Positions 15,850-38,166 of a stretch of 51,335 bases of DNA are shown here, piece after piece. The notes beneath the pieces are model-generated. The model saw only the letters and a program-made list of their open reading frames with translations, did not search any database and was not told the DNA's origin. The position numbers and the translations under genes are program-made. Where the stretch lies: NCBI GenBank assembly GCA_902610905.1, contig CACLXS010000006.1:1-51335 (forward strand), written 5' to 3'. Source of the stretch: an uncultured SAR86 cluster bacterium (lineage in GTDB: Bacteria > Pseudomonadota > Gammaproteobacteria > Magnimaribacterales > D2472). Within the stretch, counting starts at the first letter, position 1. Each line of letters begins with the position of its first letter.

Positions 15850-15865
15850 TTCTAAAACATAAATC

Positions 15866-15895: not shown

Positions 15896-15898
15896 GAT

Positions 15899-16807: not shown

Positions 16808-16812
16808 AAATT

Positions 16813-21863: not shown

Positions 21864-24284
21864 ATGTCAAAAATACAATTAAAACCACTTTTTGAAAAAA
21901 AAGTCGATCCATTATCTTATTTATTAAGAGATATTTTTAAAGATAATAACTTTGCAATCTCATGGCTTGGAGCCTTGTCAATTGGTATTGGAGTAACAAA
22001 TACAAATAATATTAATGCACAAGATAGCGTAGAAGAAGTTATTGTTACTGCCTCTAAAAAAGAACAACGTATACAAGATGTTGCTATGAGTGTGCAAGCT
22101 ATTTCTGCAGCTGATCTTGAAAGAAAGAATGTAAAAAGTCTTGAGGATATCGCCAATTTATCACCAGCTGTTACTTTTGAAAATGTTGGACCAGGCAAAT
22201 CTAATTTTTATATAAGAGGAGTTTCTGATGGCTCAGCCATGAACAGTTATGCTGGTACTGAAGCAACTGCAGCACTGTATTTAGATGAACAGCCATTGAC
22301 CGCTGCAAGTCTGACGCCTGATTTGCATGTATATGATGTTGAAAGGGTAGAAGTATTAATGGGTCCTCAAGGTACACTTTATGGCTCAAGCTCTACCTCA
22401 GGCAATATTAAAATTATTACTAAGAAACCAGATCCTTCATCAATTGATTATGGGTTCGATGCTGAATATGGATCAATAACTGATGGTGGAAATGATCAAT
22501 CTCTTGAAGCATTTGTAAATATCCCGTTAGGCTCAAATTTTGCAGCAAGATTAAGTACATATGATGTACAAGATGGTGGGTGGATAGATAATCAAAGAGC
22601 GACATATACCTATCAAAACTATGGCATTAATTACACAATTGATAATTATACTGCGCCATACAATGTTGCAAAGGATGATTATAACGAGTATGACAAAAAA
22701 GGAAGCAGATTAAGATTATCAACTAATTTTGATAATATTAATTTAGATCTTTCTTTTTTAAATCAAGATTCTACATATTCAGGATCATATGAAGCTGATG
22801 TTCTTACAGATGACCAAAGCAAGGCAATGCCTGCAAGAACCAATACAAGGTTTACTCCAGAAACTTATGAAGATGAGTTTGACCAAATCTCTGCAACTCT
22901 AAGTGGAAATATAAATGACGATATAGATTTTGTGCTTACCTCGTCTATCTTCGAGAGAGATACAGCATATACTTATGACTATTCAAGTTATGTAGAGTAT
23001 TACTATTATGCTGCATATCCATCATATGTATGTGACTATTACGATTATTATTATTATGGAAATATTTCTAATTGTAGAGATCCAAGAATGTCTTATGCAC
23101 AAACTAATGATATTCAAAGAACAGCTACAGAGTTCAGAATACAGTCTAGTAGTGATTCAGGCTTTAGTTGGGTCCTTGGTGCTTTTAAGGAATCTAGTGA
23201 TAAGGTAACTGATGTAGATTATATACAGCCAGGTAGTGTTAATGGTTTATGGTGGGAGGCTGATTTAGATAGAGAAACTAAAACTGAAGCAATATTTGGT
23301 GAAGCTTATTTTGACTTAAGTGAAAAAACATCTCTTACTCTTGGTTTCAGAGATTATGAACATACCACAGATCTGGTATCCAGTGACGGTTATTATGGAA
23401 GCTATTCATATACGTCTGGTGGAATTGATGGAAAATTCTCCTCGTCAGAGTCAGGAATTGTTCCAAAAATAAATCTTAAGCATTACATAAAGGATGACGT
23501 TATGGTTTATGGAAATTATACTGAAGGATTCAGACCAGCAGGTGTAAATCGTGTTAGAGCAGACAGGAGAGGTCTAGTTCCTGTTAATTATGATGCTGAT
23601 TATCTTGAAAGTTTAGAATTCGGTGTCAAATCGACTTTAAATGATGGAAAGCTTATTTTAAATGCTGCTTATTATCAAATGGATTGGTCAGATTTTCAAA
23701 CGACTACTTATAATCCTGATTTAGAGTCTGTAGCATTTGTTGATAATGTTGGTGACGCAGAAATTAATGGTTTTGAATTAGACATAACCTATCTTATTAA
23801 TGACGTTACTTCTGTTACTGCATACTTTAATTCAAACGATCCTACATTATCTGAAGATTATTATGGAGATGAGGGCGTTTTAACTGCCAATGCAGGTAAC
23901 AGATTATCAAATATGCCAAAGTCTTCATATTATTTATCATTAGACAGAGACATTGTTCTTATGGGTCTGCCAGGATTTTTGAATATAGATTATTCATTTG
24001 TTGGTGATAGATTTAGTACTTTTGAAAATGTTTCATCAGGTTCAGATATAAGAGAGGTTTTACCTTCATATGGACTAGCTAATATGCGCTTAGGTGTAGA
24101 GATGGATAATTCTATAATTGAAGCTTATATCTCAAATATTGCAGATGAAGACGGTTATCTATCAAGATACGATGACTTTGCACAAGCCGGAGATCCTGCT
24201 ACTTCAGGTTATCCTGGATTTGGTATTAGAAGGACAGGCACTAAGCCAAGAGTCATCGGAATAAGATATAGATATAGATTCTAA
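21864..24284 (+). CDS. TonB-dependent receptor TBDR2, with tyrosine-rich extracellular loop
   Basis: 806 residues. The N-terminus is unusual: about 30 polar residues come before a weak hydrophobic stretch (ISWLGALSIGIGV) ending NINAQD. The TonB box-like EEVIVTASKKEQ and plug follow (LEDIANLSPAVTFENVG, MGPQGTLYGSSSTSGNIKI), then a barrel ending in YRYRF, a standard aromatic C-terminus. A loop around residues 373-408 holds about 13 tyrosines with a Cys at each side. It resembles the iron-siderophore-like receptor family expanded in marine Gammaproteobacteria and sphingomonads. TBDR3 at 32766 is a paralogue with the same plug layout. The ligand is unknown. Confidence 0.93.
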   Translation: MSKIQLKPLFEKKVDPLSYLLRDIFKDNNFAISWLGALSIGIGVTNTNNINAQDSVEEVIVTASKKEQRIQDVAMSVQAISAADLERKNVKSLEDIANLSPAVTFENVGPGKSNFYIRGVSDGSAMNSYAGTEATAALYLDEQPLTAASLTPDLHVYDVERVEVLMGPQGTLYGSSSTSGNIKIITKKPDPSSIDYGFDAEYGSITDGGNDQSLEAFVNIPLGSNFAARLSTYDVQDGGWIDNQRATYTYQNYGINYTIDNYTAPYNVAKDDYNEYDKKGSRLRLSTNFDNINLDLSFLNQDSTYSGSYEADVLTDDQSKAMPARTNTRFTPETYEDEFDQISATLSGNINDDIDFVLTSSIFERDTAYTYDYSSYVEYYYYAAYPSYVCDYYDYYYYGNISNCRDPRMSYAQTNDIQRTATEFRIQSSSDSGFSWVLGAFKESSDKVTDVDYIQPGSVNGLWWEADLDRETKTEAIFGEAYFDLSEKTSLTLGFRDYEHTTDLVSSDGYYGSYSYTSGGIDGKFSSSESGIVPKINLKHYIKDDVMVYGNYTEGFRPAGVNRVRADRRGLVPVNYDADYLESLEFGVKSTLNDGKLILNAAYYQMDWSDFQTTTYNPDLESVAFVDNVGDAEINGFELDITYLINDVTSVTAYFNSNDPTLSEDYYGDEGVLTANAGNRLSNMPKSSYYLSLDRDIVLMGLPGFLNIDYSFVGDRFSTFENVSSGSDIREVLPSYGLANMRLGVEMDNSIIEAYISNIADEDGYLSRYDDFAQAGDPATSGYPGFGIRRTGTKPRVIGIRYRYRF

Positions 24285-25153
24285 TTAATTATTTCTTCTA
24301 AATTTAATGCCAGTTTATCTGGCATTTCAAAATATGGGAAATGCCCACATCCTTCAATAATTTTTACATTTTTAGAAATATCAATTTTTTGAATTAATTC
24401 AGATTCATCGTTGAATCTGGCTAATTTGTCTTTTTCACCAAAAATAAATTTAAACTTTTCTATATTGTTTATTTCATCAATATTAACTTTATAAGTTGAA
24501 CAAGCTTTGAGGTCTTTAGAAAGAATTTCTTTATGGGTTTGATTAAAAATTTTCTTTAATGGGTAAAGCTTTATTTCTCTTTCAGGATCTGATTCAACCA
24601 CTTTAGTTCCATATGGAGATTTTATGACACCCTTTGATCTTCCATAAAAACCTGAGCCTTGAACACCAAATCCGGCAGATTTAATTTCAACATCTGGTAG
24701 CTCACGAACACCATACTTCGTTAGAAATTCAGCAGCTTGATCAAGATTACCTTTTGCATATTCCAATAAAATCTCTCCAACTAAAAGAGGATAACTAGTA
24801 TTCATTAAGATCGGATTAGTATTTTTATTAATTTTTGATAAATCTAGTGCAACAAGTCCACCCATACTATGTCCAACAATGAAAGGATTATCAATCTTTA
24901 ATTCTTCTAGTGCCTCATTGCAAAATAATGAATATTCACAAATATTAGCCTCAACTGGTCCAGATGTGTAACCATGTCCTGGAAGATCAATTGATAATAT
25001 ATTGTATTTGTTAATTAGATTTGAAAAGTTAAATAACTTACCCATTCTATGATCCATTCCTGCACCAGGAATAAGAATAATTGATTGTTTAGAATCATCA
25101 AATTCATTGTGATTAAAGATATGAGCTTTATGATTCTTTAATTCGATAAACAT
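24281..25153 (-). CDS. Alpha/beta hydrolase
   Basis: 290 residues, cytoplasmic. IPGAGMDHRM gives the oxyanion region, LPGHGYTSG follows, and the nucleophile is Ser96 in VGHSMGG. Asp in FGEKDKLA and His in CGHFPYFE complete the triad. It lies downstream of BCCT1, whose 3' end overlaps its first 26 bases, so both form an operon. Its 3' end overlaps the end of TBDR2 by four bases on the opposite strand. It may hydrolyse an ester taken in through the adjoining transporters; this is inference from context. Confidence 0.8.
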   Translation of the reverse strand: MFIELKNHKAHIFNHNEFDDSKQSIILIPGAGMDHRMGKLFNFSNLINKYNILSIDLPGHGYTSGPVEANICEYSLFCNEALEELKIDNPFIVGHSMGGLVALDLSKINKNTNPILMNTSYPLLVGEILLEYAKGNLDQAAEFLTKYGVRELPDVEIKSAGFGVQGSGFYGRSKGVIKSPYGTKVVESDPEREIKLYPLKKIFNQTHKEILSKDLKACSTYKVNIDEINNIEKFKFIFGEKDKLARFNDESELIQKIDISKNVKIIEGCGHFPYFEMPDKLALNLEEIIN

Positions 25154-26612
25154 TTTTTAAAATTGAATATATCAATAAACAGTTAATAAATAATAATGGA
25201 ACTGAGAATATTACCATTATCCACTTAAAAGAATCGACCCCATTTAGATACATTAATAGGGTTGGTTGAACGACTAACAACAATGCAAATATTAATCTCA
25301 ATGATTTAGATCCTGTCATACTTGATTTTTTCATTGAAGCAGACGCAAGTACATAAGATGCTGAGTCATATGTAGTGCATAAAAAAATAATTATAATAAA
25401 TGCAAAAATAACCAATAAAGGAAAACCAAAATTTAGACTTAATATTGTATTTACTACCAGGTCAGCTCGAGAAAATATTTTATTTTCAATAATATTAGGC
25501 GCATTAATTATCTCTTGTTCAAAAAGTGATATTGATACATTTGATAATATAGTCATGCTTAAAATACAACCTAAGCTCCCAATCAATAACGCTCCAAATA
25601 TTATCTCTCTAAGTGTTTTATTATTGGAAATATTGACAAGAAAAGTTCCAACCATTGGTGCCAATGCATACCACCATGCCCAGTAAAAAACTGACCAATC
25701 AAGGCTTATTTCAGTGCCAGTAGCTAAGCTCATCTGTATGTAATTATTAGCTAAAAAACCTAGTGTCTCAGATGAATTTTTTAAAATGTAATTAGTTGGA
25801 CCTAAAAAAAGAACAATAAATAAAAACATTATTACTAAAGCCATATTAAGATTGCTTAATCTCTTAATACCATTTTGAACTCCCACATAAGCACTAGTTG
25901 CAAAAATGATGGAACAAAAAATGATTGTAAAAATATCTAATGTAAAAGTCCTTTCTATCATTAATATTTTTGAAATAACTGATGATATAAGTGGAAATGA
26001 TAATCCCAAGCCAACTCCAGAACCACAAATGATTGCACCAATAAACAAAACATCTAGAACAAATCTAAATATTTTATTTTCAATTCCCAATATTCCTGAG
26101 AAAGTCAGACTGGAATCAGGTTTTACTGTTAATGCAAGTCCAAATGCAACAACAGGAAGACAATATATTGCCCATGCAGTAAAAGTCCAATGAAATATTG
26201 GATATGATCTTGAGTAAAGTAGGACTTCCTTGGAAGTTAAATTTGTATCATTTTTTAAAATATTGTAATAATCAATCCATTCAACAGTTGACCAATACAA
26301 AAGAGTAGCACCAATACCCGCAGCAAAAAGCATTGAACTCCAAGAGATCATTGAATAGGTAGGTTTATTTTTAATATTTAATTTTATTGACCCAAATTTT
26401 GATAAACCAAGAATTATTAAAAAGATTAGTAACAAGAAACTTCCATACATGAAAAATTCTTCAAACGTTATTGATAATAATTTATATGTTTCAGATAAAA
26501 CTGAAGAACTAAACTCAGGATTTGCTAAAACAAAAATTGATAGCAATATTGATAATAAAATAGTTATACTAATTAAAGATTTATTCCAATTTGGATCAAT
26601 TATTTTTAACAT
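25128..26612 (-). CDS. BCCT-family transporter, copy 1 (divergent)
   Basis: 494 residues from ATG 26612 (a GTG 18 bases upstream is also in frame). Twelve membrane segments. BCCT features include SWSSMLFAAGIGATLLYW and the Trp-rich WAWWYALAPMVGTFLV of TM8. The family imports betaine, choline, carnitine or similar trimethylammonium or sulfonium solutes. Where BCCT2 has IARISFGRTVKEF, this copy has VNISNNKTLREI, so the usual Gly-Arg is lost and the substrate or coupling may differ. Its start codon overlaps that of the divergent TPR-sulfotransferase. It forms an operon with the hydrolase. Confidence 0.88.
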   Translation of the reverse strand: MLKIIDPNWNKSLISITILLSILLSIFVLANPEFSSSVLSETYKLLSITFEEFFMYGSFLLLIFLIILGLSKFGSIKLNIKNKPTYSMISWSSMLFAAGIGATLLYWSTVEWIDYYNILKNDTNLTSKEVLLYSRSYPIFHWTFTAWAIYCLPVVAFGLALTVKPDSSLTFSGILGIENKIFRFVLDVLFIGAIICGSGVGLGLSFPLISSVISKILMIERTFTLDIFTIIFCSIIFATSAYVGVQNGIKRLSNLNMALVIMFLFIVLFLGPTNYILKNSSETLGFLANNYIQMSLATGTEISLDWSVFYWAWWYALAPMVGTFLVNISNNKTLREIIFGALLIGSLGCILSMTILSNVSISLFEQEIINAPNIIENKIFSRADLVVNTILSLNFGFPLLVIFAFIIIIFLCTTYDSASYVLASASMKKSSMTGSKSLRLIFALLLVVQPTLLMYLNGVDSFKWIMVIFSVPLLFINCLLIYSILKNVYRIKES

Positions 26613-28578
26613 GTCAGAACTTAGTAGCACTCAATTTGCTTTTGATAATGCAGTAAATCTATTCAAGGATAATAATCTAAAAGAGTCCATAGAACAACTT
26701 GAAGAAATTCTAAAAGTATATCCAAATAACTTTGAGTCTCTAGACTTGCTATCGACTGTATTTATTAAAGGTAATAATCCAAAAGAAGCTATTAAATATG
26801 TTAATAAATGTCTGCAATTGGACAAAAGCAATAAAAAACATCTTGAATTAAGGTATAAGATTTTGACATACCTAGGAGATCATACAAGTGCATTAAAGTC
26901 TCTAGAGAATTTACATAAACTGCATCCTGCTTTAAATACAGCTAGAATTTTATCTAATCATTATTTATCTCTAGATAATGAAGACAAATCAGATCAAATT
27001 ATTCAAGATTTTCTTGAATCGGATAAAAATTATGCCGAACTTTATAAAGGTATTCGACACGTAAAGGCGGGTCGCTTTAAGCTTGCTGAAAAATCATACA
27101 AAAATGTACTTCTTAAAGATAAAAATAATATTGATGCTCTCCGATTGTTTGGTTTACTAGCATTTAAAAATAAAAATTATGTGATCGCAGAAAAATTATT
27201 TATAAAAGCGATAAAAATAGATCCATACTTTCATCTTGTTTGGGACAACCTAGCAAAGGTCTATAGGATTCAAAATAAATTGGAAAAAGCAAAGAAGTCA
27301 TTTAAAAACCTAATTAAATTAGATCCTAACAACATGGAGGCACTTGTTGCACTTGGAACAATTCATATTAAATTAGCTCAATATCAAGAAGGTATTGATG
27401 TTTATCAAAAAGCACTTGATTCTAATAATAAGAATCCTAGAGTTTATTTAAGTATGGGGCATGCTCTTAAAACTTTAGGTAAAAGAAAGGATTGTGAAGA
27501 CGCTTATAAAAAAGCTATTAATTTATTTCCATTATCTGGTGAAGGTTATTGGAGCCTAGCAAATCTTAAGACCTATAAATTTTCATCTAAAGAAATATCG
27601 TTAATGGAAAAATCATTAAATAAAGATATTCAGGACCAAGAAAAAATTCAAATGTTATTTGCATTAGCAAAGGCATATGAAACGAAGAAAGATTATAAAA
27701 AATCATTTAGTTACTACAAGGACGGTAATTGGATGCAAAGAAAAATAGTTGAATATAATGCAAATGAAAATGCAGATTCTGTTGATTTGATAATAAATTT
27801 TTTCAATTCACATAAAGATACAATAGACTTTTATTCTGGGCATAAAAATAATCATCCTATATTTATACTAGGTCTACCACGAGCAGGCTCAACACTTTTG
27901 GAGCAAATATTATCTTCACATAGTCAAATAGAAGGAACTCAAGAACTTCATAATATTATGACTATTGGTAGAAAAATTAAAACTTTAAATGATTCTGAAA
28001 ATTACCTTGATAACCTGCTTAAGCTTAGTAACAAGGAAATTAATTCTTATGGAAAAAACTATATTGATGAAACTTTATGGGCAAGAAACGAAAGGACTTT
28101 TTTTATAGACAAAATGCCAAATAACTTTCCTCACATCGGTTTAATTAAAATGATTTTGCCAAATGCTAAGATTATTGACGCTAGAAGAAATCCAATAGAT
28201 GGATGCTTTAGTTGTTACAAGCAATATTTTGCAAAAGGACAACACTTTACATATGACCTAGACGATGTTGCAAGATACTATAAAGATTATTTAAAAATAA
28301 TGAAATTTTGGAATAGTTATTTCCCTAGTGAGATTCATACAGTTTGTTATGAAAATGTCATTGAAAATCCAGAAAAAGAGGTTAGATCAATGTTGAAGTA
28401 TCTTGATTTAGACTTTGAAGAATCATGTATGAGTTTTTATGAATCTTCTCGTCCTGTAAAAACTGCAAGTTCAGAACAAGTCAGACAACCAATATATAAG
28501 TCTGGCATGAATTATTGGAAAAATTATGAAGATGATTTGATTGTGTTAAAAGAACACTTTCCTGATTATGCAAAATAA
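26611..28578 (+). CDS. TPR-repeat sulfotransferase, copy 1
   Basis: 655 residues from ATG 26611. A longer in-frame start at 26449 would only add antisense BCCT sequence and is rejected. About ten TPR units fill residues 1-400, for example FGLLAFKNKNYVIAEKLF and AYKKAINLFP. A sulfotransferase domain follows, with the PAPS-binding motif GLPRAGST at 421-428 and a second site around ARRNPIDGCFSCY. The ending PVKTASSEQVRQPIY is shared with copy 2. These fusions transfer sulfate from PAPS to an unknown acceptor, probably peptide or glycan held by the TPRs. There is no signal peptide. The nuclease gene overlaps its end by 11 bases. Confidence 0.87.
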   Translation: MSELSSTQFAFDNAVNLFKDNNLKESIEQLEEILKVYPNNFESLDLLSTVFIKGNNPKEAIKYVNKCLQLDKSNKKHLELRYKILTYLGDHTSALKSLENLHKLHPALNTARILSNHYLSLDNEDKSDQIIQDFLESDKNYAELYKGIRHVKAGRFKLAEKSYKNVLLKDKNNIDALRLFGLLAFKNKNYVIAEKLFIKAIKIDPYFHLVWDNLAKVYRIQNKLEKAKKSFKNLIKLDPNNMEALVALGTIHIKLAQYQEGIDVYQKALDSNNKNPRVYLSMGHALKTLGKRKDCEDAYKKAINLFPLSGEGYWSLANLKTYKFSSKEISLMEKSLNKDIQDQEKIQMLFALAKAYETKKDYKKSFSYYKDGNWMQRKIVEYNANENADSVDLIINFFNSHKDTIDFYSGHKNNHPIFILGLPRAGSTLLEQILSSHSQIEGTQELHNIMTIGRKIKTLNDSENYLDNLLKLSNKEINSYGKNYIDETLWARNERTFFIDKMPNNFPHIGLIKMILPNAKIIDARRNPIDGCFSCYKQYFAKGQHFTYDLDDVARYYKDYLKIMKFWNSYFPSEIHTVCYENVIENPEKEVRSMLKYLDLDFEESCMSFYESSRPVKTASSEQVRQPIYKSGMNYWKNYEDDLIVLKEHFPDYAK

Positions 28579-29251
28579 ATTTAATTATCCATTACTTGAG
28601 AGGGTGGATACAGAAATTGGTCGCCATTACTTAGATTCAAATAATGATCCTGTTCCTAGTGTTACAACAGTATTATCAGGAACATCATCAAGTAAGTCGG
28701 GTATTGATCAATGGAGGCAAAGGGTAGGAGACATAGAGGCTGATAGAGTTATTAAACAAAGTACTGATATAGGCACCGCAGTTCATGAAGCTATAGAGCA
28801 TTATTTAAATAAACATGATTGGGATAACTTTGGTCAGGATAGTGATCAACTTACGGCAAAAAATATAACTAACAAATTTATTGCAGATGGATTAAATGGT
28901 ATTGATGAGGTATGGGGATTAGAAGTAGGGTTAATTTTGAACAAACTTTATGCTGGCACTGCAGATTGTGTTGGCATTTATAATGGAGTACCAACTTTAA
29001 TAGATTTTAAGACAGCAAAAAGAATTAAAAAAAGAGAATGGATAGAGGATTACTTTTTACAAGGCTGCGCCTATGCAAATGCACATAATGTAATGTTTGA
29101 TACAAACATTCAGCAAGTTGTTATCTTGATGGTCGATAGAGATTTACTATTCAAAGAATTCTTAGTTACTTCACCTGAATTCAATCATCTAACAACAAAA
29201 TGGAAACAAAGATTAATTGATTTTGATAAAAAATTTAAAGCAGTGAAATGA
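28568..29251 (+). CDS. PD-(D/E)XK nuclease, MGME1/RecB-like
   Basis: 227 residues with a complete active site: His73 (GTAVHEAIE), Asp133 (GTADCVG), Asp146-x-Lys148 (DFKTAK) and Gln165-x3-Tyr169 (LQGCAYA). This His/Asp/DxK/QxxxY order is that of the Cas4/RecB/MGME1-like exonucleases. Similar single-domain nucleases occur in marine phages and in some small marine genomes. It overlaps TPR-ST1 by 11 bases upstream and the peptidase gene by 4 bases downstream, so it is translated within that operon. DNA end processing is likely; no partner helicase is encoded here. Confidence 0.82.
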   Translation: MQNKFNYPLLERVDTEIGRHYLDSNNDPVPSVTTVLSGTSSSKSGIDQWRQRVGDIEADRVIKQSTDIGTAVHEAIEHYLNKHDWDNFGQDSDQLTAKNITNKFIADGLNGIDEVWGLEVGLILNKLYAGTADCVGIYNGVPTLIDFKTAKRIKKREWIEDYFLQGCAYANAHNVMFDTNIQQVVILMVDRDLLFKEFLVTSPEFNHLTTKWKQRLIDFDKKFKAVK

Positions 29252-29946
29252 AACAAATTATAGCAATTGGTGGCGGAGGGTTCGGAAGAGAAATCAAAGA
29301 TCTCAAAATAGAAAAATATATTGTTGATCAATCTAAAGCTAGAACACCTAAAATTTGTTTTATACCAACTGCTACAGGCGATGATCAAGCTTATATAGAT
29401 ACTTTTTATAAAGCTTTTAATTCATTGGGATGCATAACTTCTCATATTAATTTTTTTAAAAGAACAATTAATCTTAAAGAACATATCTTAGATCAAGATA
29501 TTATTTATGTTGGTGGCGGTAATACTAAAAGCATGTTAGCAGTTTGGAGAGAATGGAATCTAGATTTAATTTTAAAACAAGCATATAAAAACAATATTAT
29601 TATGAGTGGTGTAAGTGCTGGAGCAATATGTTGGTTTGAAAAAGGAATAACAGATTCATGGAAAAACCATCAATCAATTCTTCCTTGTCTTGGATTTGTG
29701 GAAGGAGTCTGCTGTCCTCATTACGATGAAGAGCCTGAAAGAATACCTTTTGTAAAAGAAATACTTGAAGCAAAAAAAATTGATGAATGCATTGCTATTG
29801 AAGGCTATTGTGCTCTTCATTTAATAAATGATTCTCCTAAATTCTCTATTAGCTTTAAAAATAAAGCCGATACCCATTCTGTTGTATGTAATAATGACAA
29901 GATATTACATAAATCATTATTAGGTGTAGAAAAAAAGATAATATGA
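29248..29946 (+). CDS. Peptidase E-like (S51 family) protein
   Basis: 232 residues with the glutamine-amidotransferase-like fold. The N-terminal IAIGGGGF, central YVGGGNTKSML and the nucleophile elbow GVSAGAICWF (Ser123) are classic S51 features. The His region near CCPHYDEEP also fits. Family members are aspartyl dipeptidases or related cyanophycin/isopeptide hydrolases acting in the cytoplasm. It overlaps the nuclease gene (ATGA) and the next membrane gene (ATGA), so translation is coupled. The exact peptide substrate is not evident. Confidence 0.86.
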   Translation: MKQIIAIGGGGFGREIKDLKIEKYIVDQSKARTPKICFIPTATGDDQAYIDTFYKAFNSLGCITSHINFFKRTINLKEHILDQDIIYVGGGNTKSMLAVWREWNLDLILKQAYKNNIIMSGVSAGAICWFEKGITDSWKNHQSILPCLGFVEGVCCPHYDEEPERIPFVKEILEAKKIDECIAIEGYCALHLINDSPKFSISFKNKADTHSVVCNNDKILHKSLLGVEKKII

Positions 29947-30320
29947 AAATAGCAAATATATTGTCAATTATATTAGCTTTAATCCTAGGCATAATCTCTT
30001 TGCAATGGATATTCTCTCCAGAAGAGGCAGCAAATTCACTAGGTATGATTTATATGGAAGGGGATGCAAGGAATACTCAAGTTAGGGACTTTACAGCTTT
30101 TTTTCTTGGCACTGCCATAATGTCATTTCTCTCTTTTATAACTAAACAATATCAATGGATACTTAGTGCAGGAATAATTTATTTAGTTGCTGCTATCTTC
30201 AATGTTTTGACATCCATTAATTATGAAACTGATATTGCAGTTGCATCATTAATATCTGAAATAATATTTACATTTATGGCATTTACAGCCGCATACATTT
30301 ATAAGAAAAATAATTTATAA
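29943..30320 (+). CDS. Small four-helix membrane protein, paralogous to the C-terminal half of the protein at 39709
   Basis: 125 residues with four membrane segments. Marks are WIFSPEEAANSLGM, RDFTAFFLGTA and AGIIYLVAAIFNV. The protein at 39709-40539 carries WVFTPESAAADYGF, RDFTSFFISTF and AGIIYYGAAVFNL in the same order, so the two share a domain. I do not recognise a named family with certainty; DUF4345-like proteins look similar in size. It overlaps the peptidase gene by four bases and converges on the nitroreductase gene with a short overlap. Confidence 0.7.
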   Translation: MKIANILSIILALILGIISLQWIFSPEEAANSLGMIYMEGDARNTQVRDFTAFFLGTAIMSFLSFITKQYQWILSAGIIYLVAAIFNVLTSINYETDIAVASLISEIIFTFMAFTAAYIYKKNNL

Positions 30321-30866: not shown

Positions 30867-30918
30867 GTGTAGTTTTATTATATAAATTAGATAGTCTAAT
30901 TATATATAGGAAATCCAT

Positions 30919-31074
30919 ATGATGTATCAGATCGGTTTGATTTTAATATTGGTTGTTATAGCTTTAATTGTTGCTAAAAAATATAGAAATAATGATGATA
31001 ACTCTGAACAACTTATTTATGAAGATGAGATGAATGATGAAGAGTTAAAAGAATTAGATGATGAAATAAATTAA
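30919..31074 (+). CDS. 51-aa single-pass membrane protein with acidic tail
   Basis: The ATG at 30919 follows ATAGGAAATCCAT. Residues 3-19 (YQIGLILILVVIALIVA) are hydrophobic, KKYR follows, and the last 30 residues are strongly acidic (Asp/Glu in more than half of the positions after 35). Its stop overlaps the stop of the convergent BCCT2 gene by four bases. No family recognised. The N-out or N-in topology and a regulatory role for the acidic tail are open. A good RBS and clean fit between neighbours support it. Confidence 0.6.
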   Translation: MMYQIGLILILVVIALIVAKKYRNNDDNSEQLIYEDEMNDEELKELDDEIN

Positions 31075-32552
31075 TTAGCTACTTCTTTTTCAAAAGATCT
31101 ATAAAGTTCTCTACATGCAAAAACAGTTATTATTGAAAAAGGTATCCCAAATATAACAACTGCTGTTTGTAGAGCTCCCAGTCCTCCAGCTTTTAATAAT
31201 ACAGCAGCCAAAACACCTAAAAGTGTTGCCCAAGTAATTCTTGAAATTAATGGTGAATCACCATTAATTTCTGCACCTTTTTTTGAAGAAAGCATAGAAG
31301 CAACTAAAGCACCTGAGTCAGAAGATGTAACAAAAAATGTAACAATTACAAACAAAGTCAAGACAGATAGTATTAATGAAAATGGAAATGCATCATATAA
31401 AACAAATAATGCAGTCGTTACATCATCACTTACAGCATTGGCTATATTCCCTATATTATTTAAAACTTGATAAATTGCTGCATTACCAAAAACCCCCATC
31501 CAAATAAAAACAATTAAAGAAGGAACAAACAAAACACCAATTACAAACTCTTTAACTGTTCTACCAAATGAAATTCTAGCAATAAACAGTGAAACAAAAG
31601 GCGCCCATGCAAACCACCAGCTAAAATAAAATAATGTATAGCCATTTTGATAGACCGTTGAGTCATATGCCTCTGTCCATGTCGCAAGCTGAATTAATTG
31701 ATTTAAATACACACCTGCATTTTGAATTACAGAATTAAGAATAAATAATGTTGGACCTAAAATTAATATAGCTAACAATAAAATTCCTGCAATCGTTATA
31801 TTTAATTGTGATAGTCTTTTGATGCCTTTATCCAGACCTAATGAAACACTTATTAATCCTAAAATTGTTATTAAGACTATTATTATCATTTCACTAATTT
31901 CAAGATTAAAGACATAATTTAAACCTCCACTTATTTGAGATGCACCTAAGCCTAATGAGGTTGCTATTCCAGTGATGGTGGTAAGAATTGCAATGATATC
32001 TATAGAAGCTGCCATAAGCTTATTGTTTTCAATTGATGAACCTAATAAGGAGCTAACTCTGAATGGCTTATTTCTATTATATGATGCATATGCTATGCAC
32101 AGTCCAAGAGCAGAATATATGGCCCAACCATGTAAACCCCAATGAAGATTGGCTAAGCTTAATGCTTTACTGGCATTATATGAAAGATTACCTTCAATCA
32201 TTCCAGGGTAATCATTTAAATTACCAATAGGTTCGGCTACTCCATAGAACAGAAGACCAATGCCCAAACCTGCACTAAACAACATTGCAATCCAACTTTT
32301 ATAAGAATAGGCCGGATTAGCATTAGTGCCACCAAGCTTAATATCTTTAAATTTACTAAATACTAGATATGTAGAAAATATTAAAAAGCCATTAGCAATA
32401 ACAATTATCAACCAACCCAAGTATTCGGATAGAAATAGTTGTGTAGATGAAAAAAAAGCCGATGATGCATCTAAATTTAAGTAAACAATAAAAGTAACTA
32501 TTATTAAAAGCAGGACTGATATTAAAAATCTGGGTTTGTTAAGGTTTTTCAT
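31071..32552 (-). CDS. BCCT-family transporter, copy 2
   Basis: 493 residues with 12 membrane segments. The canonical signature is present: SAGLGIGLLFYGVAEP in TM3 and the Trp-rich FSWWFAWAPFVSLFIARIS of TM8, followed by FGRTVKEF and MGVFGN. The family takes up betaine, choline, carnitine or DMSP-like solutes with Na+ or H+. The SDSGALVASMLSS segment near the end is typical as well. It diverges from TBDR3 over 213 bases. A pairing of outer-membrane receptor and inner-membrane carrier is suggested by position only. Confidence 0.95.
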   Translation of the reverse strand: MKNLNKPRFLISVLLLIIVTFIVYLNLDASSAFFSSTQLFLSEYLGWLIIVIANGFLIFSTYLVFSKFKDIKLGGTNANPAYSYKSWIAMLFSAGLGIGLLFYGVAEPIGNLNDYPGMIEGNLSYNASKALSLANLHWGLHGWAIYSALGLCIAYASYNRNKPFRVSSLLGSSIENNKLMAASIDIIAILTTITGIATSLGLGASQISGGLNYVFNLEISEMIIIVLITILGLISVSLGLDKGIKRLSQLNITIAGILLLAILILGPTLFILNSVIQNAGVYLNQLIQLATWTEAYDSTVYQNGYTLFYFSWWFAWAPFVSLFIARISFGRTVKEFVIGVLFVPSLIVFIWMGVFGNAAIYQVLNNIGNIANAVSDDVTTALFVLYDAFPFSLILSVLTLFVIVTFFVTSSDSGALVASMLSSKKGAEINGDSPLISRITWATLLGVLAAVLLKAGGLGALQTAVVIFGIPFSIITVFACRELYRSFEKEVAN

Positions 32553-32616
32553 TTTTTATTTTTTAGTGAAACATAAAATATGCTATTTATCTAGAAATTT
32601 AATAGACTTAATAAAT

Positions 32617-32644
32617 TTGCATACTTATTATTTACTGTTATTAT
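32617..32644 (+). promoter_or_regulatory. Candidate promoter for TBDR3
   Basis: TTGCAT (32617-32622) and TATTAT (32639-32644) are 16 bases apart. The leader would then be about 115 bases long. It includes two G-runs (TTGGGGGAAACAGGGGAC) that I cannot explain. Confidence 0.35.
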
Positions 32645-32765
32645 AGACTCAAGACCGATTTACAGAAATTGCTGGTCGTTAAATAAAGCTAAACTTCTCT
32701 TGGGGGAAACAGGGGACATCTTTATTTATTCGCAATTTATAATAACTATAAATAGGGAATTATAT

Positions 32766-35249
32766 ATGTTTAATTTAGATAAAGTAAAAGAACAACTTTC
32801 TAAATACTCAAACAAACTATCTATTGGTATTCTTGGTTCAGTAGCTGCTATTGTTCCACAGACTGCTGAATCACAAGATAGGCAAATTGAGGAAGTCGTT
32901 GTTTCTGCTACTAAAAAAGATGAAAGTGCTTCAGATATACCTGTAACCGTTACAGCTCTTACTGAAGATACTTTAAAAGAAATGAATGTTTCAAACTTTG
33001 ATGAGTACGTAGAGTATTTACCAAATGTTACTTCAGGTGGAAGAGGTCCTGGACAGTCAACTATCTACATTAGAGGTTTGGCAGTTGATCCAGTGAACGT
33101 TTTCTTATCTGCTGCACAAGGATCAGCTCCAAATGTCGCACTTTATTTAGATGAACAACCAGTTCAAGTTCCTGGTCGTAATTTAGATGTATATGTAGCT
33201 GATATGGAACGTATTGAAGTTCTTCCTGGACCACAAGGAACTCTTTTTGGAGCAAGTTCACAGGCTGGTACTGTTAGACTTATTACTAATAAACCTAAAT
33301 TTGAAGTTTCTGAAAGTGGCTTTAATGCATCTCTTTTTAATACCCACAATGGTGACATGAGCTCATCATTTGATGCCTTTATTAACGTGCCTGTAAGTGA
33401 TACATGGGCAATAAGAGGTGTTCTATATAATGCTAATAATGGAGGTTATATAGATAACGTAGCTGGTGTATGGAGCTCTGAAGGTAAAGGTGGTTTTGGC
33501 GGACCTTTAGGAAATTATGCTAATGCATCTTCGTATGTTGAAACTTCTAATAATCATTTAGTAGAGACTGATTTTAATGATTCTTCATATGAAGGATTTA
33601 GAATTTCATCAGCTCATACAATCAATGATGATTGGGATCTCTTAATTAGTCACATGGATCAGACAATTGAAGCTGATGGTGTATGGGACTACGATCCTGC
33701 TGTCGGTGATCTTCAAGTACAAAGATATGTCCCAGACACATTAGAAGATTCTTTCTCACAAACATCTATTACCCTTGAAGGTAGACTTGGTAAGCTAGAT
33801 GTTGTTTATACAGGTTCTGTTCTTGATAGAGAGGCTGAGCAAACAGTGGATTACTCAGGTTACATTAATGTTGGTGGTTATATGCCATATTACACATGTA
33901 TATATGCATCAGCTACAAGCGCTGGATCATGTGGTGCTGGTACAGTTCAGGTAGATCTATTAGATAATAATGAAAGAACCACCCACGAGTTTAGGGTTTC
34001 CTCAAACGAACTTAATGAACTACCTTTCTCTTATACTGCAGGTGTATTTATAGAAGAAAGCAATCTTAAAACTCAAAATGATTATGGATATCTTGGATTT
34101 TTAGACTCCTATCCAAGTGTAGGGCCAAACCCTATAATAACTGGAGTATATGCTAATAATCCAAACCCAAGATCCCCTGAATATAGATTTTTCAATGATA
34201 TTGAAAGAAATGATGAACAAACAGCATTCTTTGCTGAGTTAACATTCCCTTTAACTGAAAAATTAGATCTTCTTTTTGGAGCTCGTAACTATGACTTAGA
34301 TATAGATTACAAAGGTCAATCCAAATTTGGTGGGTTGATTGTTCAGGATGAATGGGGAAGAAATTATGATACTTCTGGTGGTCACACCGACCAGCCGTTA
34401 AATCTTTCTGATACTATAACTAAATTTACAGCTAGTTATAAAGTTGATGACGATACATTAGTCTACTTTACTCAATCCGAGGGTTATAGACCTGGTGGAT
34501 ATAACAGGGGTGGTGGTCTTGTGAATTCATGTGCTAATAGAGATCCTTCTGCTGATGGATATTGTGGTGAAGGAGCTGGAGAAAACTTCAGAGCTAATGT
34601 AAGTACCACTTTTGAGTCTGATGAAGTATTAAATACAGAATTGGGCATCAAAACTGTTGTTGCAGATGGAACAATGAGAATTAATGCTACCTACTATATG
34701 GTTGAGTGGACAGATATCCAAGTTTCACAATTTGATCCAACTAATATCTCAATCTTAACATTTGTTGAAAATGCTGCTGATGCTGACATTAGTGGTTTTG
34801 AAGCTGATGTATTGTGGTATCCGGCTGACAATTGGACAATTGCTGCTGCATTATCATTGAATGATACAGAGATAGTGAAAGATGTTTCTCAAACAGTGCC
34901 TATAGTAGATATCGGCAGTCCTTTACCATTATCACCTGATAGACAATACAATATTAGGTTAAGAAGAGATGGTACATTTAAAGGCAATCCATCCTATACA
35001 CAGTTTGCATTCAAAAGTGCATCAGAAACTTATAATTCTTTTGAATCTGCTAAGGTATTAGAACAAGCTGATTATCAAGTACTTGATTTAGCTTTCGGAA
35101 TGACCTTAAATGATACGGATATCGAGTTCTTTGTAAGAAACCTTACTGATGAAAGAGCAAATCTTTATTATAACGATCAAGATGATATTCCGAGAATTAC
35201 AACGAATAGACCAAGAAATATGGGTGTCCGTATTTCTCGTAAATTCTAA
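32766..35249 (+). CDS. TonB-dependent receptor TBDR3
   Basis: 827 residues from ATG 32766, which has AATAGGGAATTAT upstream. A TTG-initiated extension to 32700 exists but lies in the G-rich leader and is rejected. The N-terminus resembles TBDR2: a long polar stretch, a weak hydrophobic part (LSIGILGSVAAIVPQ), then IEEVVVSATKKDE. The plug has LPNVTSGGRGPGQSTIYIRG and LPGPQGTLFGASSQAGTVRL. The barrel ends in VRISRKF. At the loop matching the Tyr-rich one of TBDR2 it has YTCIYASATSAGSCG, again with two Cys. The ligand is unknown; BCCT2 and TPR-ST2 flank it. Confidence 0.94.
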   Translation: MFNLDKVKEQLSKYSNKLSIGILGSVAAIVPQTAESQDRQIEEVVVSATKKDESASDIPVTVTALTEDTLKEMNVSNFDEYVEYLPNVTSGGRGPGQSTIYIRGLAVDPVNVFLSAAQGSAPNVALYLDEQPVQVPGRNLDVYVADMERIEVLPGPQGTLFGASSQAGTVRLITNKPKFEVSESGFNASLFNTHNGDMSSSFDAFINVPVSDTWAIRGVLYNANNGGYIDNVAGVWSSEGKGGFGGPLGNYANASSYVETSNNHLVETDFNDSSYEGFRISSAHTINDDWDLLISHMDQTIEADGVWDYDPAVGDLQVQRYVPDTLEDSFSQTSITLEGRLGKLDVVYTGSVLDREAEQTVDYSGYINVGGYMPYYTCIYASATSAGSCGAGTVQVDLLDNNERTTHEFRVSSNELNELPFSYTAGVFIEESNLKTQNDYGYLGFLDSYPSVGPNPIITGVYANNPNPRSPEYRFFNDIERNDEQTAFFAELTFPLTEKLDLLFGARNYDLDIDYKGQSKFGGLIVQDEWGRNYDTSGGHTDQPLNLSDTITKFTASYKVDDDTLVYFTQSEGYRPGGYNRGGGLVNSCANRDPSADGYCGEGAGENFRANVSTTFESDEVLNTELGIKTVVADGTMRINATYYMVEWTDIQVSQFDPTNISILTFVENAADADISGFEADVLWYPADNWTIAAALSLNDTEIVKDVSQTVPIVDIGSPLPLSPDRQYNIRLRRDGTFKGNPSYTQFAFKSASETYNSFESAKVLEQADYQVLDLAFGMTLNDTDIEFFVRNLTDERANLYYNDQDDIPRITTNRPRNMGVRISRKF

Positions 35250-35267
35250 GTAAAGCGTATAGAATTT

Positions 35268-35296
35268 AAAGGCCAGTATTAACTGGCCTTTTTTTA
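35268..35296 (+). terminator. Terminator after TBDR3
   Basis: A perfect 10-bp stem AAAGGCCAGT / ACTGGCCTTT has a 4-nt loop and seven T. Its design matches the terminator after the Oar-like receptor. The TPR-ST2 ATG follows six bases after the T run. Confidence 0.93.
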
Positions 35297-35301
35297 TATT
35301 A

Positions 35302-37257
35302 ATGAAAACTGATAATAAGATAAATCAAAAAATACGTGATTTAATATCTGCAAAAGATTTTGATAAATCTCTAATATTTATTGAAGCTAATAAAGATAAA
35401 CTAAGTGAACTAGATTATTGGTTTTATATATCAGTTAATCTTAGATATTTAGAACGCTTTCAAGACGCTTTAGCATCTTTATCAAAGCTAATAAAGATAG
35501 ACAGCACATATGGTCGAGCATATCAAGAATATGGACATAACTACGTAAAACTAAATAAAAAAGATTTAGCATTGAAAGCTTATACAAGAGCTGTTAACTA
35601 CAATCCATCTTTACAAGCATCATGGCTAGGAATTCTTGGATTAGATAATGCTACCGAAGATATTATTAATTTAGCAAATAAAAATATTATATATTTAAAA
35701 AACTTGCCCCCAGAACTTAAATCAGTTTTAAGTTTTATACATGAAGGAAAACTCAAAAAAGCTGACGACTTATGCAGATTTTATTTACAAAACTCACCTC
35801 ATCATATTGATGGTATGAAATTATTAGCTACTATTTGTTCAGAATTACATGTTTATGATGATGCAGAATTTCTATTAGAAAGTTGTCTAGAGTTTGAGTC
35901 AGACAACTTAGATACATTAATTCAATATATAAATATTTTAATAAAAAGACAGAAATATGGATCAGCTCTTGAACATGCAAAAATAATGTATAGTAAATTT
36001 CCCAATGATATAAATGCTGAAATTACATATGCTGTCACACTCCAACAAACCGATAATCAAATAGAAGCATTAGACCTTTATAAAAAAATTCTAAAGAAAA
36101 ACCCTGCAAACTATCAACTTCATTTGTCTTGTGGACATTTATATAAAAATTTTGGTGTGATTGAAAATTCAATAATTTCATATAAAAAGTCATACGAAAT
36201 TAATAATTTCTGTGGTGATGCTTATTGGAGTTTAGCAAATCTAAAAACTTATAATTTTGATGATAGTGAAATAAAAAAACTAGAGGAAATGGTTTTAGAT
36301 GAATATATAAATGATGAAGAAAAGATATACATGCATTTTGCTTTAGGAAAAGCTTACGAGGATGCAACTGAGTATGAAAGATCCTTCAGTCATTATAAAA
36401 AAGGAAATGATTTAAAACTTCCATATACTAAATATAAGACCAAAGACTTTATAATTGAATGTTCCAATCAAAAAGAAGTTTGTACGGAAGACCTATTTAA
36501 CATAAAAAAAGATTGGGGAAATTCATCAAATGAACCAATTTTTATTCTTGGTCTTCCAAGAGTTGGATCTACATTGGTTGAGCAAATACTTGCCTCTCAT
36601 AGCATGGTTGATGCCACGCATGAATTACCAAATATACTTGCAATATCACATAAATTAAATTTAAGGAGAGCTCAAGATAAAGAATCTCGCTATCCAGATA
36701 TACTTTTATCTTTATCAGCTCCTCAATTTAAACTAATTGGTGAGAACTATATAAATGATTCAGAAGTCTTCAGAAAAGATGGGGTATATTTTATAGATAA
36801 AATGCCTAATAATTTTAGGCATATTGGGTTAATTAAGCTAATTTTACCAAATGCAAAAATTATTGATATTAGAAGAAATTCTATGTCAGCTTGTTTTTCA
36901 TGTTACAAACAGCTATTTGCAGAGGGCCAAGAATTTACTTATAGCTTCGAAAGGTTAGGTAATTATTATAATAATTATATTGATCTTATGGATCATTGGA
37001 ATAAAGTTTTACCCAATCAAATACTTTCAGTCAATTATGAAGATCTTGTAAATAATTTTGAATTTACAGTAAAAGAAATATTAGATTATTGTAAATTACC
37101 TTTTGAAGATGCATGTATAGAATTTTATAAAAGTAAAAGGTCTGTAAAAACTCCAAGTGCTCAACAGGTTCGTCAACCCATTTACACATCTGGTTTAGAT
37201 TATTGGAAAAATTATGATCCTTATCTAGATGAACTTAAAAAACATCTAAATTATTAA
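35302..37257 (+). CDS. TPR-repeat sulfotransferase, copy 2
   Basis: 651 residues and a clear paralogue of the protein at 26611. TPR units fill about 1-390 (FQDALASLSKLIKIDSTYGR, KKDLALKAYTRAVNYNP). The sulfotransferase domain has the PAPS motif GLPRVGST at 417-424, DKMPNNFRHIGLIKLILPN, and RRNSMSACFSCYKQLFAEGQ. The end carries PSAQQVRQPIY like copy 1. It begins right behind the TBDR3 terminator and has no Shine-Dalgarno, so it is either read by leakage or has a promoter inside the receptor gene. The acceptor is unknown. Confidence 0.88.
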   Translation: MKTDNKINQKIRDLISAKDFDKSLIFIEANKDKLSELDYWFYISVNLRYLERFQDALASLSKLIKIDSTYGRAYQEYGHNYVKLNKKDLALKAYTRAVNYNPSLQASWLGILGLDNATEDIINLANKNIIYLKNLPPELKSVLSFIHEGKLKKADDLCRFYLQNSPHHIDGMKLLATICSELHVYDDAEFLLESCLEFESDNLDTLIQYINILIKRQKYGSALEHAKIMYSKFPNDINAEITYAVTLQQTDNQIEALDLYKKILKKNPANYQLHLSCGHLYKNFGVIENSIISYKKSYEINNFCGDAYWSLANLKTYNFDDSEIKKLEEMVLDEYINDEEKIYMHFALGKAYEDATEYERSFSHYKKGNDLKLPYTKYKTKDFIIECSNQKEVCTEDLFNIKKDWGNSSNEPIFILGLPRVGSTLVEQILASHSMVDATHELPNILAISHKLNLRRAQDKESRYPDILLSLSAPQFKLIGENYINDSEVFRKDGVYFIDKMPNNFRHIGLIKLILPNAKIIDIRRNSMSACFSCYKQLFAEGQEFTYSFERLGNYYNNYIDLMDHWNKVLPNQILSVNYEDLVNNFEFTVKEILDYCKLPFEDACIEFYKSKRSVKTPSAQQVRQPIYTSGLDYWKNYDPYLDELKKHLNY

Positions 37258-37824: not shown

Positions 37825-38166
37825 TTAATTTTTAATTATAAATTTTCTATCATTTCGGGCTAAACCGCGATGAACACAACTTAGATTGCTCGTATTTTTA
37901 TCTAATAGAGTAATTATTTCATGATTAAACATACAATAAGTTTGTATAAGATCTGTTATGTAAACCTTTGAAATTGGTTCTTCAAGAAAGCTTGTTACAG
38001 ACAAAATATCATATTTATTGCACAAATTAATTTTACTAATTGCATCTTTATAGGCATCTTCAGCCGATTGAAGTCTTTTTGTAATTAAAATGGAACATTT
38101 TGTATCAAACTCTCCTAATACATTAAAAGAAAATAGTAAAAGTGATAATGAGAATAAATGTTTCAT
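37825..38166 (-). CDS. Small exported cysteine-containing protein, unknown function
   Basis: 113 residues with a signal peptide (MKHLFSLSLLLFSFNVLG). The mature part has four Cys (TKCSIL, INLCNKY, TYCMFN, LSCVHRG), enough for two disulfides, and looks helical. It ends in a basic tail. I recognise no family. ATG at 38166 lies 13 bases after the stop of the 57-aa membrane protein, with AAGGTTAT upstream, so the two form an operon. Periplasmic location is inferred. Confidence 0.6.
   Translation of the reverse strand: MKHLFSLSLLLFSFNVLGEFDTKCSILITKRLQSAEDAYKDAISKINLCNKYDILSVTSFLEEPISKVYITDLIQTYCMFNHEIITLLDKNTSNLSCVHRGLARNDRKFIIKN

What the first reader, a model, noticed from the sequence alone, without database searches (positions are those of the whole stretch)
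21864..37257. Receptor, BCCT carrier and TPR-sulfotransferase occur twice: a candidate two-copy system
TBDR2/BCCT1/TPR-ST1 (21864-28578) and BCCT2/TBDR3/TPR-ST2 (31071-37257) contain the same three families within 16 kb, and each member is paralogous to its counterpart. The sulfotransferases share GLPR(A/V)GST, DKMPNNF and QVRQPIY. An outer-membrane receptor plus an inner-membrane solute carrier would give complete uptake. The sulfotransferase could modify the receptor, a surface ligand or the imported compound. Known families, but I know of no described pathway that joins them. Function is inference.
Basis: partly seen in the sequence, partly recalled or inferred. Interest (0 to 1): 0.7.

Follow-up and report, generated by a model that had tools for sequence, protein, structure and literature searches.

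The report
Receptor paired with a tyrosine-sulfating enzyme
Many marine bacteria and their relatives carry an outer-membrane nutrient receptor next to an enzyme that looks like the animal enzymes that put sulfate on tyrosines, and the receptor has an unusual tyrosine-rich surface loop that may be that enzyme's target, which would be a new way for bacteria to tune a nutrient receptor.

Summary
In detail: SAR86-type window with TBDR2/BCCT1/TPR-ST1 and BCCT2/TBDR3/TPR-ST2. The core is a receptor-sulfotransferase PAIR, far wider than this window. A receptor of one clade lies beside 86 of 89 SAR86 TPR-STs and 57 of 62 from other Alpha/Gammaproteobacteria. In 149 gammaproteobacterial genomes, window's own included, receptor clade and TPR-ST type occur in the same 6. 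At one SAR86 locus receptor and ST changed type together at least five times while BCCT2 stayed. BCCT is a frequent companion; co-duplication is rejected. The ST domain is modelled closest to animal protein-tyrosine sulfotransferase; 127 of 128 rows keep its four catalytic residues; the TPR half resembles O-GlcNAc transferase's. All 128 linked receptors share two tyrosines (DY-S/T-x-Y, mostly) in extracellular loop L4; 0 of 56 control receptors do. Best reading: TPR-ST sulfates its receptor's loop. Not shown biochemically; SAR86 shows no recognisable ATP sulfurylase. I found no description in the papers searched.

The parts
20742..21770 (+). esterase-like protein (PHB-depolymerase family), often upstream of TBDR2
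   Evidence: NCBIfam NF050058 98 bits, below its cut-off of 150; precedes TBDR2-type receptors in other SAR86 loci
21864..24284 (+). TBDR2, TonB-dependent receptor (806 aa)
   Evidence: Pfam Plug and barrel; AF2 model, mean pLDDT 78.9, 22 strands counted by me from the strand list; Foldseek best match FyuA
22977..23075 (+). Tyr-rich, Cys-bounded loop L4 of TBDR2 (D372 to C404): proposed sulfation site DY373-S-S-Y376
   Evidence: Y373 and Y376 in 128 of 128 linked receptors; lies between strands 354-372 and 410-428 on the long-loop side of the barrel (parts of the loop have pLDDT under 50)
24281..25153 (-). alpha/beta hydrolase, overlaps BCCT1 (operon-like)
   Evidence: PF12697; kept beside BCCT1 in many SAR86 loci
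25128..26630 (-). BCCT1 carrier
   Evidence: PF02028 315.6 bits
26611..28578 (+). TPR-ST1: TPR superhelix plus sulfotransferase domain (catalytic part about 27820-28575)
   Evidence: Pfam; AF2 mean pLDDT 88.7; top structural matches tyrosylprotein sulfotransferases, Z 21.4-22.0
31071..32552 (-). BCCT2 carrier, divergent from TBDR3
   Evidence: PF02028 520.2 bits; NF047988 glycine betaine BCCT 454 bits, below its cut-off of 650
32766..35249 (+). TBDR3, TonB-dependent receptor (first listed start TTG 32700)
   Evidence: Plug 60 bits; 27% identical to TBDR2 along its length
33849..33932 (+). Tyr-rich, Cys-bounded loop L4 of TBDR3 (DYSGY...YYTC...C)
   Evidence: aligned with L4 of TBDR2
35302..37257 (+). 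TPR-ST2 (catalytic part about 36499-37254), 53 bp behind TBDR3
   Evidence: Pfam; catalytic domain 52% identical to ST1

Best explanation
Each TPR-ST is a cytosolic protein-tyrosine sulfotransferase dedicated to the TonB-dependent receptor encoded beside it. Its TPR superhelix, like that of O-GlcNAc transferase, holds the unfolded receptor before export; its TPST-like domain puts sulfate on tyrosines of the DY(S/T)xY...YYxC segment. After export and assembly this segment is extracellular loop L4, usually with a Cys pair that could close it, and its anionic aromatic side chains shape ligand capture. In loci with a BCCT carrier the ligand is probably a betaine/choline/carnitine-like cation, which the loop binds and the BCCT brings through the inner membrane. 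SHOWN by computation: dedicated receptor-ST pairing, joint change of type, TPST-like fold with all four catalytic residues, a conserved Tyr/Asp loop predicted extracellular and specific to paired receptors, frequent BCCT neighbours. INFERRED: that the ST acts on the loop, the order (before export), the sulfate donor in SAR86, the disulfide, the ligand. Rough odds: functional pair 0.95; ST is a protein-tyrosine sulfotransferase 0.7; target is loop L4 0.55; quaternary-ammonium-type ligand where a BCCT is present 0.5.
For: Pairing: receptor of the clade (>320 bits) within 3.7 kb of 86 of 89 SAR86 type-1 TPR-STs; the other three lie at an end of the contig or of the stretch fetched; outside SAR86 within 3 kb of 57 of 62. 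Genome level: receptor clade (>=590 bits) and type-1 TPR-ST (>=350 bits) in the same 6 of 149 gammaproteobacterial genomes (the window's own is one) and in none of the other 143; without the window's genome, 5 of 148, 1/C(148,5)=1.8e-9 if genomes were independent. Joint change: at the BCCT2 locus, 42 loci, receptor-ST distance correlation 0.973 against 0.12 and 0.05 with BCCT2; partial r 0.975 (largest of 999 permutations 0.259); at least 5 switches of receptor type on the BCCT2 tree; ST type matches in 42 of 42. Four of four receptor types and their partner STs are each one group in both trees; Mantel r 0.572 for 51 pairs outside SAR86, largest permutation 0.196. Enzyme: best profile matches are protein-tyrosine sulfotransferases over the whole domain; the TPST1 catalytic residues R79, E100, K159, S286 (PMC5562738, passages) align with Arg (127 of 128, one gap), Glu, Lys, Ser (128 of 128 each); model: 7 best matches all TPSTs, Z 21.4-22.0, against 17.7 and 17.2 for polyketide sulfotransferases; TPR part near OGT. 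Substrate: Y373 and Y376 in 128 of 128 linked receptors, Asp/Glu just before Y373 in 122 of 128, Tyr fraction 0.23 in L4 against 0.006-0.067 in L1-L3 and L5-L10 (L11 gave no value); human TPSTs favour Asp at -1. Control: both Tyr in 13 of 14 clade receptors (two of them the window's own) and 0 of 56 others, 29 of which score 150 bits or more with the clade model. Ligand: BCCT within 6 kb of 86 of 89 SAR86 and 23 of 62 other TPR-STs; recurring neighbours include a betaine-aldehyde-dehydrogenase-like ALDH (10 loci by similarity, one member annotated) and, at one locus annotated, a Rieske oxygenase.
Against: No biochemistry. SAR86 has no recognisable ATP sulfurylase: PF01747 in 0 of 8 SAR86 genomes, PF01507 at most 25 bits in 7; only a short APS-kinase-like protein, so its PAPS source is unknown. 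One clade receptor (L230, G209) lacks Y373 although a TPR-ST lies about 1.6 kb away. G232 has a clade receptor and a type-1 TPR-ST on different contigs, neither with its usual partner; G121 has one TPR-ST without a clade receptor in the stretch fetched. L210 pairs a TPR-ST with a TonB receptor outside the clade. Without alignment, the pattern DY[STA]xY is found in 11 of 14 clade receptors and 1 of 56 others, so the separation is less sharp. 27 of the 56 controls score under 150 bits, where the aligned columns mean little. The loop could be a ligand site that needs no sulfate; motif, clade and ST are inherited together, so the control cannot fully separate them. Adjacent genes can change together by linkage alone. 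No BCCT within 6 kb of 39 of 62 TPR-STs outside SAR86 (15 of the 31 with full flanks).
Confidence: 0.55

Rival explanations
1. The TPR-ST sulfates the imported ligand or a product of it (small molecule or peptide) in the cytosol; the Tyr-rich L4 is simply the ligand-binding loop.
For: Catabolic genes recur around some loci (ALDH, Ldh_2, M19 dipeptidase, hydrolases); the ST domain is also related to polyketide sulfotransferases.
Against: A long TPR superhelix and a TPST-type catalytic set point to a protein substrate; the ST travels with the receptor and not with the carrier BCCT2; the neighbouring enzymes differ from locus to locus while the receptor is constant.
Confidence: 0.2
2. The TPR-ST modifies another surface or secreted molecule (glycan, lipid, secreted peptide), and the receptor takes up or senses the product.
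For: RaxST of Xanthomonas sulfates a secreted peptide (PMC6637879, passages).
Against: Apart from BCCT I saw no third gene as constant as the receptor and the ST near the pairs; the clustering took only ORFs of 150 aa or more, so short peptide genes were not screened.
Confidence: 0.1
3. In SAR86 the TPR-ST no longer sulfates from PAPS: it uses another donor, or is a receptor chaperone.
For: No ATP sulfurylase recognised; only a short APS-kinase-like protein.
Against: All four catalytic residues kept in the SAR86 rows, one gap in a broken frame apart.
Confidence: 0.1
4. Adjacency without functional link: neighbours that hitch-hike and are exchanged together by linkage.
For: In 56 of 78 SAR86 pairs the two genes are within 100 bp.
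Against: The pair stays together across Alpha- and Gammaproteobacteria in several gene orders (ST before, after or divergent from the receptor), with 1.5-2.4 kb of other genes between them in 17 of 78 SAR86 pairs, and at genome level.
Confidence: 0.03

Closest known systems
Tyrosylprotein sulfotransferases TPST1/TPST2 (animals)
   Same: catalytic domain fold (Z about 22), R/E/K/S catalytic residues; substrate Asp at -1 matches the D-Y of the loop
   Different: TPSTs are membrane-bound in the trans-Golgi and have no TPRs (recalled); TPR-ST shows no signal peptide by eye, carries a TPR superhelix and sits beside one receptor gene
RaxST of Xanthomonas (bacterial tyrosylprotein sulfotransferase)
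   Same: bacterial, uses PAPS, modelled on TPST2 (PMC6637879, passages)
   Different: RaxST acts on the secreted peptide RaxX and is encoded with type I secretion genes; here the partner is an outer-membrane receptor and the protein has TPRs
O-GlcNAc transferase / SPINDLY and a Xanthomonas OGT homologue
   Same: architecture: TPR superhelix plus transferase domain; the TPR part is among the close structural matches
   Different: sulfotransferase domain instead of a glycosyltransferase
CurM / olefin-synthase sulfotransferase domains
   Same: sulfotransferase fold, next-best match
   Different: lower score (Z 17.2-17.7); act on polyketide chains (recalled); the CurM alignment does not reach the SxxQV catalytic segment
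TonB-dependent transporters with a dedicated neighbour, such as BT2172 with the DUF4249 protein BT2173
   Same: a receptor subfamily almost always encoded next to one partner family (PMC11003636, passages)
   Different: that partner is not known as an enzyme (recalled: a lid-like protein)

Membership tests
Tyrosylprotein sulfotransferase (TPST) | sulfotransferase fold of TPST type | tested here: met
   AF2 model; 7 best structural matches all TPST, Z 21.4-22.0, rmsd 2.6-3.0, 235-239 residues; hmmsearch E 1.1e-13
Tyrosylprotein sulfotransferase (TPST) | catalytic Arg, Glu, Lys, Ser (R79, E100, K159, S286 of TPST1) | tested here: met
   alignment (numbering worked out by me), residue roles from PMC5562738; R 127 of 128 (one gap), E, K, S 128 of 128
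Tyrosylprotein sulfotransferase (TPST) | sulfates tyrosine in proteins | not testable with these tools
   candidate sites only
Tyrosylprotein sulfotransferase (TPST) | type II membrane protein of the Golgi | tested here: not met
   bacterial; N-termini of ST1 and ST2 without a membrane segment by eye, helical repeats from residue 7 on. So it works like a TPST but is not filed as one
RaxST system | raxX peptide and raxAB beside the gene | not tested
   no search with RaxX or RaxAB was made
TonB-dependent receptor | plug plus 22-strand barrel | tested here: met
   Plug in both receptors, barrel Pfam in TBDR2 only; AF2 model of TBDR2 with 22 strands as I count them; FyuA TM-score 0.70/0.88
BCCT carrier | PF02028 over the gathering score | tested here: met
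   315.6 and 520.2 bits
Glycine betaine BCCT (NF047988) | equivalog cut-off 650 bits | tested here: not met
   454 and 230 bits: substrate not assigned
PAPS supply in SAR86 | ATP sulfurylase plus APS kinase | tested here: inconclusive
   ATP sulfurylase not recognised (CysN not searched); short APS-kinase-like protein in 91 of 107 genomes, above Pfam's cut-off

The most novel reading that the evidence does not exclude
A widespread bacterial tyrosine-sulfation system dedicated to outer-membrane nutrient receptors: each receptor carries a conserved tyrosine target loop, its own TPR-guided sulfotransferase modifies that loop before export, and receptor plus enzyme are exchanged between genomes as a cassette, so that a sulfated loop sets which (probably cationic) compound is taken up.
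Probability: 0.5. Interest if true: 0.92.

Novelty: new variant of a known kind. Interest (0 to 1): 0.78.

Why it matters
The one bacterial protein-tyrosine sulfotransferase described in the papers seen here is RaxST. A receptor-dedicated, TPR-guided one, found in SAR86, Alteromonadaceae, Porticoccaceae, Woeseiaceae, sphingomonads and other Alpha/Gammaproteobacteria, would be a new post-translational layer on nutrient uptake, and would give a handle on the ligands of many marine TonB receptors whose substrates are unknown. It makes concrete predictions: which two tyrosines, which enzyme, which receptors.

Tried and rejected
Co-duplication of a three-gene unit: rejected by the BCCT tree, the receptor and ST trees and the slot comparison.

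Total tyrosine content as the signal: weak. In the own genome the unlinked receptor at C3 (L020) has 7.1% Tyr, close to TBDR2's 8.2%; the position-specific motif is what separates the sets.

My first reading of the weak APS_kinase matches in SAR86 as TsaE-type ATPases was wrong: the best PDB relatives are APS kinases and APS_kinase is the best Pfam match of both proteins tried, above its cut-off (AAA_18 is also just above its own cut-off in one of the two).

Ligand from carrier identity: neither BCCT reaches an NCBIfam equivalog cut-off, so the substrate stays open.

First count of receptors near SAR86 STs: one search gave 88 of 89 with any receptor-like ORF over 60 bits. The check with the clade threshold gives 86 of 89: one of the two others has only a 105-aa receptor fragment at a contig end (L068), the other counted an unrelated receptor (L063; its own partner is in the next stretch, L064).

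Literature: ten searches gave no paper joining TonB receptors and TPR-sulfotransferases; only open-licence PMC papers are held. PMC10040529, PMC10932419, PMC5562738, PMC6637879 and PMC11003636 were seen as passages only. PMC10040529 lists TonB receptors, a BCCT and sulfotransferases among separate halotolerance-associated clusters, without joining them in the passages seen. PMC10932419 notes a TonB gene near one of 17 arylsulfate sulfotransferase (ASST) genes of Sutterella, a different enzyme type.

Which of the 80 loci are SAR86 was set by me from title or gene order. Of 133 receptor-ST pairs (78 + 55) 128 entered: receptors under 700 aa were dropped. In one search, 6 of 76 receptor ORFs were dropped as repeats of the same receptor, and the 30 loci from each are the best plug matches, not all. 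Mantel permutations do not correct for shared descent; the trees are FastTree trees used without their support values.

Full report
OBSERVATION. An alpha/beta hydrolase (24281-25153, -) stands between TBDR2 and BCCT1. The paralogues are old: 36% (ST, 52% in the catalytic domain), 27% (TBDR), 31% (BCCT) identity. The genome is 1.02 Mb, 78.6% complete; the nearest named relatives found by the ST are SAR86. It holds 2 BCCT genes, both here, 11 Plug receptors, two of them here, and 3 Sulfotransfer_3 genes, two of them here.

RECURRENCE IN SAR86. An ST-domain model finds the gene in 82 of 107 genomes of the family, often in two copies 8-9 kb apart. I fetched 60 regions of my choice. Together with the window they hold 89 type-1 TPR-STs: 86 have a receptor of the clade (over 320 bits) within 3.7 kb and 86 a BCCT within 6 kb; the three without a receptor lie at an end of the contig or of the stretch, one of them 71 bp from a receptor fragment, another with its partner in the next stretch fetched. 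Genes around the locus are conserved, but the receptor-ST pair in a slot is not always the same type.

JOINT CHANGE. In the slot beside BCCT2 (42 loci) receptor and ST distances correlate at 0.973, but receptor-BCCT2 only at 0.12 and ST-BCCT2 at 0.05; the partial correlation given BCCT2 is 0.975 (largest of 999 permutations 0.259). The receptor type changes at least five times on the BCCT2 tree (FastTree, support not tested) and the ST type follows in 42 of 42. Four receptor types (18, 19, 24 and 16 members) are each one group in the receptor tree, and their partner STs each one group in the ST tree; no two receptor types are sisters, while in the ST tree the partners of TBDR2-type and of the fourth type are. 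So the unit of inheritance is the receptor-ST pair. BCCT1 and BCCT2 are each one group, but BCCTs of other bacteria lie between them: no co-duplication.

RECURRENCE ELSEWHERE. Of 62 type-1 TPR-STs outside SAR86, 57 have a receptor of the same clade within 3 kb; of the five others three lie near a contig end, one (L210) has another kind of TonB receptor immediately upstream and one (L211) shows only a receptor fragment upstream. BCCT lies within 6 kb of 23 of 62 (16 of the 31 with full flanks). Gene order varies: receptor before, behind or divergent from the ST; BCCT divergent from the receptor or behind the ST. Hosts of the TPR-ST include Alteromonas, Bowmanella, Colwellia, Woeseia, Porticoccaceae, Litorirhabdus, Kordiimonas, Hyphomonas, Phenylobacterium, Novosphingobium, Erythrobacter and Steroidobacter. 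Among 149 gammaproteobacterial genomes drawn across the class (the window's own plus 148 of at least 90% completeness), the receptor clade (>=590 bits) and the type-1 ST (>=350 bits) occur in the same six, the window's own among them, and in no other. Of the 11 clade receptors in these six genomes, 10 have a type-1 ST nearby, with at most about 2.2 kb between; one in G232 has not, and G232 and G121 each have one ST without a clade receptor in the fetched region.

THE ENZYME. The closest solved relatives of the ST family profile are protein-tyrosine sulfotransferases (E 1e-13), aligned over the whole domain including the C-terminal S-x-x-Q-V segment. The catalytic residues of human TPST1 are R79, E100, K159, S286 (PMC5562738, passages). 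By my reading of the alignment they fall on the Arg of GLPRxGS, the Glu of GTxEL, the Lys of DKMPNNF and the first Ser of SSEQVRQP; among 128 TPR-STs the Arg is present in 127 (one gap, in a broken frame) and the other three in 128. The AF2 model of TPR-ST1 (mean pLDDT 88.7) has TPSTs as its seven best matches (Z 21.4-22.0), ahead of polyketide sulfotransferases (17.7, 17.2); its TPR superhelix is near that of O-GlcNAc transferase and of peptide-binding TPRs. The N-termini of ST1 and ST2 show no signal peptide by eye.

THE CANDIDATE TARGET. The AF2 model of TBDR2 is a plugged barrel close to siderophore receptors. I count 22 strands in its strand list; the loop of residues 373-409, partly of low confidence, lies between strands 354-372 and 410-428, on the side of the long loops, hence extracellular (L4). 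Over 128 linked receptors (77 SAR86, 51 others) Y373 and Y376 are present in 128 of 128, Asp (121) or Glu (1) just before Y373 in 122, Y388 in 126, and each of the two Cys in 117; the Tyr fraction of L4 is 0.23, against 0.006-0.067 in L1-L3 and L5-L10 (L11 gave no value). Human TPSTs favour Asp at -1. In 70 receptors collected by plug or clade searches, both Tyr occur in 13 of 14 clade members (two of them the window's own) and in 0 of 56 others, among them five near relatives at 369-437 bits; 29 of the 56 score at least 150 bits, and for the 27 below that the aligned columns mean little. Without alignment, DY[STA]xY occurs in 11 of 14 and 1 of 56. The exception in the clade, L230, has Ala at position 373.

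MECHANISM. The simplest reading is a protein-tyrosine sulfotransferase with a TPR substrate-holding arm, dedicated to the neighbouring receptor, acting on L4 before export (inferred). Sulfated tyrosines could form an anionic aromatic cage. Where BCCT is present, and where a betaine-aldehyde-dehydrogenase-like ALDH (10 loci by similarity, one member annotated) or, at one locus annotated, a Rieske oxygenase occurs, a quaternary-ammonium-type ligand is plausible; other loci have an SSF symporter, phosphodiesterases, esterases or amidohydrolases, so the ligand probably differs between receptors.

AGAINST. SAR86 shows no ATP sulfurylase: PF01747 in 0 of 8 genomes and PF01507 at most 25 bits in 7; CysN was not searched. 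It has a 135-aa APS-kinase-like protein in 91 of 107 genomes, whereas 5 of 5 other gammaproteobacteria with the pair have ordinary APS kinases. How SAR86 would charge the enzyme is open. Clade, motif and ST are inherited together, so a pure ligand role of the loop is not excluded. Nothing here is biochemical.

KNOWN OR NEW. Protein-tyrosine sulfation by a bacterium is known for RaxST (PMC6637879, passages), and a TonB transporter subfamily with a dedicated neighbour is known (PMC11003636, passages). I found no paper that joins TPR-sulfotransferases with TonB receptors (open-licence PMC only). I file it as a new variant of a known kind: TPST-like chemistry in an OGT-like architecture, paired with an outer-membrane receptor.

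Noticed in passing
window 12793-18063 (+): A CarboxypepD_reg/OMP_b-brl_4 outer-membrane protein, a 2OG-Fe(II) oxygenase and a Na+/nucleoside transporter in a row; parts of the same row recur in other SAR86 loci. Looks like another receptor-plus-carrier set, perhaps for nucleosides.
   Followed up: partly
L252, L253, L254, L255, L256, L257, L258: A second type of TPR-sulfotransferase (about 110-295 bits with the A4 model) occurs in other gammaproteobacteria, often in twos or threes and sometimes beside large ORFs of about 830-1340 aa that I did not annotate; in L252 one is divergent from a receptor outside the clade that lacks the tyrosine motif.
   Followed up: partly
G000:C2:67979-68230; L260, L281: A short (about 135 aa) APS-kinase-like protein in 91 of 107 SAR86-family genomes although no ATP sulfurylase was recognised; function unknown.
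   Followed up: partly
L153:5059-6753 (-), also L165: A 564-aa lipoprotein-like ORF without a Pfam match at 1e-10 stands divergent from the third SAR86 receptor-ST pair, where BCCT2 stands for TBDR3.
   Followed up: no
window 28568-29251, 29943-30320, 37825-38166: Three ORFs without a Pfam match at 1e-4 keep their place beside the two modules in many SAR86 genomes.
   Followed up: no
L065, L066 (G044), L072 (G040): Receptor, carrier or ST genes of the module appear in several pieces, as by frameshifts or sequencing errors.
   Followed up: no
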